In this document: piece after piece, positions 38,821-38,863 of the stretch
Position numbering within the stretch: position 1 is the stretch's first letter
Layout of the letters: the number at the start of each line of letters is the position of its first letter
Source: Deltaproteobacteria bacterium
Lineage (GTDB): Bacteria; JAEEML01
Assembly (NCBI GenBank): GCA_016283195.1
Contig: JAEEML010000040.1
Span: forward strand, 1-40,905
DNA: 40,905 nucleotides
Direction: 5' to 3'
Program-made: the position numbers and the translations under genes
The notes under the pieces: generated by a model
Seen by the model: the letters and a program-made list of their open reading frames with translations, nothing else
The model's database searches: none
What the model was told of the DNA's origin: nothing

Positions 38821-38837
38821 TTGGCACATAAATTGCA
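38821..38837 (+). promoter_or_regulatory. Sigma-54 (-24/-12) promoter
   Basis: TTGGCACATAAATTGCA: GG at 38823-38824, ten bases, GC at 38835-38836, near-perfect match to TGGCACG-N4-TTGCW. The expected transcription start (about 38848) falls inside the adjacent (AG)13 tract. The downstream genes are the lipoprotein at 38995 and two secreted proteins. Confidence 0.7.
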
Positions 38838-38863
38838 AGAGAGAGAGAGAGAGAGAGAGAGAG
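38838..38863. repeat. Dinucleotide tandem repeat (AG)13
   Basis: Thirteen perfect AG units starting one base after the -12 element of the sigma-54 promoter and spanning its predicted start site. The remaining 130 bases before the lipoprotein gene contain no gene. Confidence 0.97.

What the first reader, a model, noticed from the sequence alone, without database searches (positions are those of the whole stretch)
38821..38863. (AG)13 tract placed exactly at the start site of a sigma-54 promoter
The tract begins one base after the -12 box TTGCA, so any length change alters only the initially transcribed region, not the -24/-12 spacing. This could tune expression of the surface lipoprotein/adhesin cluster by reiterative initiation, promoter escape or leader length, a contingency mechanism different from ordinary spacer-length variation.
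Basis: partly seen in the sequence, partly recalled or inferred. Interest (0 to 1): 0.7.

Follow-up and report, generated by a model that had tools for sequence, protein, structure and literature searches.

The report
Microsatellite tract at sigma-54 start sites
A run of 13 AG repeats sits exactly where a sigma-54 promoter starts transcribing a surface lipoprotein gene; a sister copy in the same genome has only 4 repeats, and a few unrelated Bacteroidales lineages carry the same arrangement at dozens of promoters per genome, which points to an undescribed, repeat-tuned way of controlling surface genes.

Summary
(AG)13 (38838-38863) directly follows a perfect sigma-54 box (TGGCAC-N5-TTGCA, 38822-38837). 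It is the only (AG)>=7 run in the 3.2 Mb genome. rpoN and about seven sigma-54 activators are present. A paralogous promoter on contig C19 has the same box but (AG)4, the only indel in an otherwise ungapped ~400-nt block, so tract length does vary. In three of those genomes 44 of 46 A-start AG tracts of >=8 units follow an exact box. Only 3 of 393 Bacteroidales genomes have it. Leaders >=85% identical almost never share tract length (1 of 63 pairs). The tracts precede SusC-like receptors, NHL/TIG lipoproteins and ECF sigma genes, and 64% have an intrinsic terminator about 96 nt after the tract (4% in controls). The window genome also holds a second family: 11 sigma-70-like promoters with (ACTGA)2-16 just after the start. 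I found no published description. Length-tuned expression is the best explanation but is not shown; the step affected is unknown, and no read-level or expression data were available.

The parts
38803..38820 (+). inverted repeat CATATA-N6-TATATG abutting the -24 element
   Evidence: also in the C19 paralogue; Bacteroidales tract promoters show a 6-bp inverted repeat in the same place (40% score >=6 against 3.5% in shuffles), with several different arm sequences
38822..38827 (+). -24 element TGGCAC of sigma-54 promoter
38833..38837 (+). -12 element TTGCA of sigma-54 promoter
38838..38863 (+). (AG)13 tract, about -10 to +16
   Evidence: (AG)4 at the same place in the paralogue G000:C19
38848..38848 (+). 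expected transcription start (A, about 12 nt after the C of TTGC); inferred, not mapped
   Evidence: from the usual sigma-54 geometry
38864..38994 (+). 5' leader after the tract; no intrinsic terminator found on this strand
38957..38976 (+). hairpin AAGCGG-N8-CCGCTT in the leader, identical in the paralogue
38982..38987 (+). Shine-Dalgarno-like AAGGAG
38995..39540 (+). lipoprotein gene (181 aa, lipobox LVPGC), no Pfam family
39572..40486 (+). secreted protein of 304 aa, no Pfam family; N-terminal domain resembles that of the next gene by eye
40498..40905 (+). next gene of the cluster, cut by the contig end
3443..3477 (+). (ACTGA)7 array about 11 nt after a sigma-70-like -10 (TTGAGG-N17-TAAGAT), upstream of lipoprotein-like ORF 3735-4391; member of an 11-locus family in this genome

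Best explanation
A sigma-54 promoter whose melted region, start site and first transcribed bases are a slippage-prone dinucleotide run. Replication slippage changes the number of units (shown indirectly: 13 against 4 in the paralogue; 4.5 to 46 in Bacteroidales). Sigma-54 recognition is kept because the -24/-12 boxes lie outside the run. The length change alters the 5' end of the leader RNA and, when very short, the start-site sequence itself, and so tunes how much of the surface gene is made (inferred). In the Bacteroidales lineages the same run heads an attenuator-like leader with an intrinsic terminator about 96 nt further on, so the most likely point of action there is early elongation or leader function rather than promoter opening (inferred). 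It would work like other simple-sequence contingency loci, graded rather than strictly on/off.
For: Only AG tract of its size in the genome, exactly at a perfect box. Paralogue with (AG)4, the tract being the only gap in the homologous block. The same placement arises in unrelated Bacteroidales: 111 of 119 sites at offset 0, 44 of 46 A-start AG tracts (>=8 units) preceded by an exact box, one G-start tract, reversed control 0. Leaders at least 85% identical share tract length in 1 of 63 pairs, e.g. 97% identical with 16.5 against 40.5 units. Three sites have (AC)n instead of (AG)n at the same offset, so the repeat nature is kept while the unit changes. Tract promoters drive SusC-like receptors, NHL/TIG lipoproteins, an LRR protein and ECF sigma factors; 72 of 76 tested sites face a sense gene. 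Intrinsic terminator at a fixed place in 64% of leaders against 2-4% in controls. Second SSR-after-promoter family in the window genome. Precedent: (AGAT)n upstream of Moraxella uspA2 with length-dependent mRNA (PMC7302503, PMC4679880).
Against: No expression, start-site or read-level data. Tract lengths come from draft assemblies, which are unreliable for long runs. For about 6 units and more the promoter sequence up to the start does not depend on length, so an effect must come from the leader. Tract-leader pairing is not above shuffles. The window leader lacks the terminator seen in Bacteroidales, so the two may not work alike. In the window genome only this promoter pair carries an AG tract.
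Confidence: 0.5

Rival explanations
1. Mutational by-product: the stably melted sigma-54 open complex, or replication-transcription conflict there, promotes slippage, so a short TTGCAGAG seed grows without benefit.
For: Tracts lie exactly in the region melted by sigma-54 and almost nowhere else in three genomes; the paralogue shows a ready seed, (AG)4.
Against: Confined to few lineages: 3 of 393 Bacteroidales genomes, though most bacteria with sigma-54 melt the same region. Several sigma-54 sites in the same genomes lack a tract, e.g. before an ABC transporter and a TetR-like regulator. Tracts are mostly long (median 22.5 units) with few short ones.
Confidence: 0.2
2. The tract has a fixed sequence role that depends little on length: an unstructured A-rich 5' end for ribosome or protein binding, a purine-rich start region, or reiterative initiation producing heterogeneous 5' ends.
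For: AG and AC runs are both unstructured as RNA; offset is fixed at TTGC; predicted pairing with the leader is weaker than for shuffled leaders in Bacteroidales.
Against: Very wide length range (4.5 to 46) between near-identical leaders fits poorly with a fixed-size binding site; the (AG)4 paralogue would have almost no transcribed AG.
Confidence: 0.2
3. In Bacteroidales the element is mainly a sigma-54-driven small RNA ((AG)n plus about 100 nt ending in the terminator) that acts elsewhere, e.g. as an antisense or sponge RNA with the AG run as the pairing part.
For: Terminator at a tight distance after the tract (median 96 nt, quartiles 89-102) with varied stems. A variable G-run in an mRNA leader is known to set sRNA targeting in Helicobacter pylori (Pernitzsch 2014, listed in the references seen).
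Against: 72 of 76 sites are followed by a sense gene, as expected for leaders; the window copy has no terminator; no Rfam family matches.
Confidence: 0.1

Closest known systems
Moraxella catarrhalis uspA2 (AGAT)n tract upstream of the gene / in the 5' UTR
   Same: Simple-sequence tract in the transcribed leader of a surface-protein gene; mRNA level depends on repeat number (PMC7302503, PMC4679880).
   Different: Tetranucleotide, single locus, not known to be sigma-54; here dinucleotide, directly at the -12 box, and regulon-wide in some lineages.
Haemophilus influenzae hif / Neisseria opc and porA type spacer tracts
   Same: Slippage in a promoter-region repeat of a surface gene.
   Different: Those change the -35/-10 spacing; here the boxes lie outside the tract. 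L016 in another genome shows the spacer type with AG. (From own knowledge; opc is cited in the references seen.)
Helicobacter pylori tlpB G-repeat targeted by RepG
   Same: Variable repeat in a leader RNA sets regulation.
   Different: Homopolymer, sRNA target; no sRNA partner known here.
Beggiatoaceae/Bacteroidetes TAACTGA heptamer arrays (PMC4679880)
   Same: Intergenic tandem repeats upstream of many genes in a few lineages, function unproven.
   Different: Heptamer near start codons; here tracts are tied to a promoter class and its start site.
Bacteroides leader regulation of PUL and capsule loci (DonS antisense RNAs; UpxY antitermination)
   Same: RNA-level control upstream of susC-like or surface genes.
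   Different: No microsatellite and no sigma-54 promoter described there. (DonS: PMC7366714; UpxY from own knowledge.)

Membership tests
sigma-54 (RpoN) promoter | TGGCAY-N5-TTGCW with -24/-12 spacing | tested here: met
   15 consensus boxes in genome against 0 reversed
sigma-54 (RpoN) promoter | rpoN and AAA+ activators in the genome | tested here: met
sigma-54 (RpoN) promoter | transcription from the site depends on RpoN; start mapped about 12 nt after GC | not testable with these tools
   needs RNA data
simple-sequence contingency locus | pure short-unit tract far longer than expected in the genome | tested here: met
simple-sequence contingency locus | tract length varies while flanks are conserved | tested here: met
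   13 against 4 in the paralogue; 1 of 63 leader pairs equal in Bacteroidales. Within-population variation not testable
simple-sequence contingency locus | length changes expression reversibly | not testable with these tools
   needs reporters or sorted variants
spacer-length promoter phase variation | tract lies between the two promoter elements | tested here: not met
   tract begins after the -12 box
attenuator leader with intrinsic terminator | terminator hairpin plus U-run between promoter and gene | tested here: not met
   window: none on this strand. The Bacteroidales sites with the same arrangement do meet it in 64%

The most novel reading that the evidence does not exclude
A regulon-wide contingency system: in certain Bacteroidales lineages most sigma-54 promoters of outer-membrane nutrient receptors, ECF sigma factors and surface proteins carry an individually hypermutable dinucleotide run from -11 past the start site, followed by a terminator at a fixed distance, so that each cell holds its own combination of tuned receptors; the window organism evolved the same design separately at a lipoprotein locus and a second version, (ACTGA)n, at sigma-70-like promoters.
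Probability: 0.35. Interest if true: 0.87.

Novelty: new variant of a known kind. Interest (0 to 1): 0.74.

Why it matters
Simple-sequence contingency loci are known mostly in host-adapted pathogens, one gene at a time, and act on reading frames or promoter spacers. Here tracts are tied to one promoter class, at one exact position, across tens of promoters per genome in apparently gut-symbiotic Bacteroidales, and independently in another bacterium. That gives a large natural set for asking what a repeat in the sigma-54 bubble and initially transcribed region does to initiation, escape and termination, and whether symbionts diversify glycan receptors by slippage.

Tried and rejected
Pairing of the AG run with the leader: strong-looking fold in the window (about -8.7 kcal/mol gain) but 18.5% of shuffled leaders do as well, and Bacteroidales leaders pair less than shuffled; rejected. 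Chance: rejected. Coding repeats: hits outside Bacteroidales (L071, L128, L116) lie in coding frames of restriction/methylase-like genes (RERERE) and look like chance matches to the box; set aside, together with L037. Close relatives of the lipoprotein: none in genome contigs or viral contigs; no genome nearer than the domain in the held set, so tract conservation in sister species could not be tested. Phage carriage: one viral contig hit only. The one AG tract in G104 without an adjacent box (C66) has a box 68 nt upstream, and the one in G099:C323 has a box with one mismatch. Known RNA family for the leaders: none. Literature: nothing on repeats at sigma-54 start sites.

Full report
Observation. 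The window holds TTGGCACATAAATTGCA followed by a pure (AG)13 run and TACATTATG. TGGCAC (38822-38827) and TTGCA (38833-38837) are a perfect -24/-12 pair. The tract is 38838-38863 and starts directly after TTGCA. Taking the C of TTGC as -12, the run spans -10 to about +16, with an A expected at +1 (38848; inferred). The consensus box occurs 15 times in the genome and never reversed; a run of seven or more AG occurs only here in 3.22 Mb. rpoN and seven strong activator ATPase matches are present. The gene behind it, 38995-39540, is a lipoprotein by its signal peptide and lipobox; it and the next gene have no Pfam match, so 'adhesin' is only a guess.

A natural length variant in the same genome. 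Contig C19 carries a paralogous promoter with the same box, the same abutting inverted repeat and the same lipoprotein start, but with (AG)4. In the alignment the only gap from about -110 to the C19 contig end is the 20 columns at the tract (18 nt of AG plus 2 nt beside it). The upstream genes differ (clpS/clpA-like genes on C19; a response regulator and tRNA-Met in the window), so these are two loci, not two assemblies of one. In the (AG)4 copy the run ends at about -3 and the start would fall in TATTATG, so the short state changes the start-site sequence itself.

The arrangement elsewhere. Nearly all are Bacteroidales MAGs (Tannerella sp., Prevotellaceae, Dysgonamonadaceae, 'Bacteroidales bacterium'). 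The isolate codes suggest termite and cockroach guts, which I did not verify. In 111 of 119 sites the run begins directly after TTGC. In three of these genomes (8.4 Mb) there were 46 A-start AG runs of eight or more units: 44 directly follow an exact box, one follows a box with one mismatch, and one has a box 68 nt upstream. Only one G-start run was found. In one genome 35 of 54 consensus boxes carry a tract, and the remaining 19 are near the 12 expected from the reversed control. Three boxes carry (AC)n at the same offset. Only 3 of 393 genomes of the order have the arrangement, with no reversed-control match. The few hits outside Bacteroidales that I could read are coding repeats in restriction/methylase-like genes, which gives a feel for the chance rate.

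Variability and context there. Tract length runs from 4.5 to 44.5 units (median 22.5) in sites with readable leaders. Among 63 pairs of leaders at least 85% identical, one pair has equal length; one pair 97% identical over 296 nt has 16.5 against 40.5 units. Long runs in draft assemblies are unreliable, so exact values need care. Of 76 sites with enough sequence, 72 face a sense gene. Pfam shows SusC-like TonB receptors, NHL/TIG lipoproteins, a leucine-rich-repeat protein and ECF sigma factors. Sigma-54 sites without a tract in the same genomes include an ABC transporter and a TetR-like regulator gene (the TetR reading is by eye). Seventy of 110 leaders (64%) have an intrinsic-terminator hairpin with its T-run a median 96 nt after the tract (quartiles 89 and 102; median -20.6 kcal/mol), against 2% in block shuffles and 4% upstream of other genes; CGCGCG lies within 80 nt of the tract in 51% against 3%. 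A 6-bp inverted repeat abuts the -24 box with several different arm sequences (score 6 or more in 40% against 3.5% in shuffles); the window and C19 copies have one too, CATATA-N6-TATATG. The leaders match no Rfam family.

A second family in the window genome. Eleven loci share TAAATAAAGCG followed by (ACTGA)n, none in the reversed control. Most show a TTG-N3, 17-nt spacer, TAnnnT element just upstream, so the array starts about five bases into the transcript of a sigma-70-like promoter (inferred); copy number is 2 to 16 with conserved flanks. One is in the window (3443-3477) before a lipoprotein-like FISUMP-domain gene. So repeats placed just past a promoter are not a one-off in this organism.

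Mechanism. Shown by sequence: placement, rarity, length differences between close copies, recurrence at a fixed place in unrelated lineages, association with surface and uptake genes, and the terminator in Bacteroidales leaders. Inferred: that slippage in living populations changes length often, and that length changes output. With about six or more units the DNA from -10 to the start is the same whatever the length, so sigma-54 opening should hardly change; the variable is the leader. That favours early elongation, termination, stability or translation over promoter strength, and in Bacteroidales the terminator makes attenuation the first suspect. Pairing of the run with the leader was tested and is not above shuffles. 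Rivals are a mutational by-product of the open complex, a fixed sequence role for an unstructured A-rich 5' end or reiterative initiation, and a small-RNA gene.

Known kinds. The nearest is the (AGAT)n tract of Moraxella uspA2, whose repeat number changes mRNA level (PMC7302503, PMC4679880). Spacer tracts are excluded by position; one such case, TTGACA-(AG)14-TATAAA, was met in another genome. Searches found no account of microsatellites at sigma-54 start sites, but the library lacks most subscription papers and all preprints. I therefore file it as a new variant of simple-sequence contingency, with the regulon-wide form in Bacteroidales as the more surprising part.

Noticed in passing
window 3443-3477; L247-L256: Family of 11 sigma-70-like promoters in this genome with (ACTGA)2-16 arrays about 11 nt after the -10; one member uses ACAGA units.
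   Followed up: partly
L003, L005, L006, L007, L001 (4738 +): Several sigma-54 boxes (TGGCACGCRATTTGCA) sit before near-identical leaders; in L003 and L006 the gene starts MRI.V.NDVIFRA, resembling the PDDEXK_2 transposase-family gene in the window (4644-5711), as if this family were sigma-54 driven. Many lie at contig ends.
   Followed up: no
window 4446-4516 and L001 about 4618-4677 (- strand): Array of TGACACACTTTTGATACACC-like units, in the window upstream of the PDDEXK_2 gene; similar units near the C19 contig end.
   Followed up: no
L222, L223, L224, L227, L228: (AC)14-27 runs follow a different conserved element (TTTGG-N11/12-TTTTGCTA) and then terminator-like hairpins: a second tract-after-promoter type in the Bacteroidales genomes.
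   Followed up: partly
Bacteroidales leaders, e.g. L051, L054, L060: CGCGCG block between tract and terminator in about half of the leaders (3% in controls); role unknown.
   Followed up: partly
L016 (- strand, about 1508): TTGACA-(AG)14-TATAAA in an unrelated genome: a classic spacer-length phase-variation candidate.
   Followed up: no
L071, L128, L116: AG repeats inside restriction/methylase-like genes (RERERE frames): likely phase-variable restriction genes.
   Followed up: no
L209:17590-17625, L213:641-668: (TTG)12 and (TCTT)7 repeats elsewhere in the window genome.
   Followed up: no
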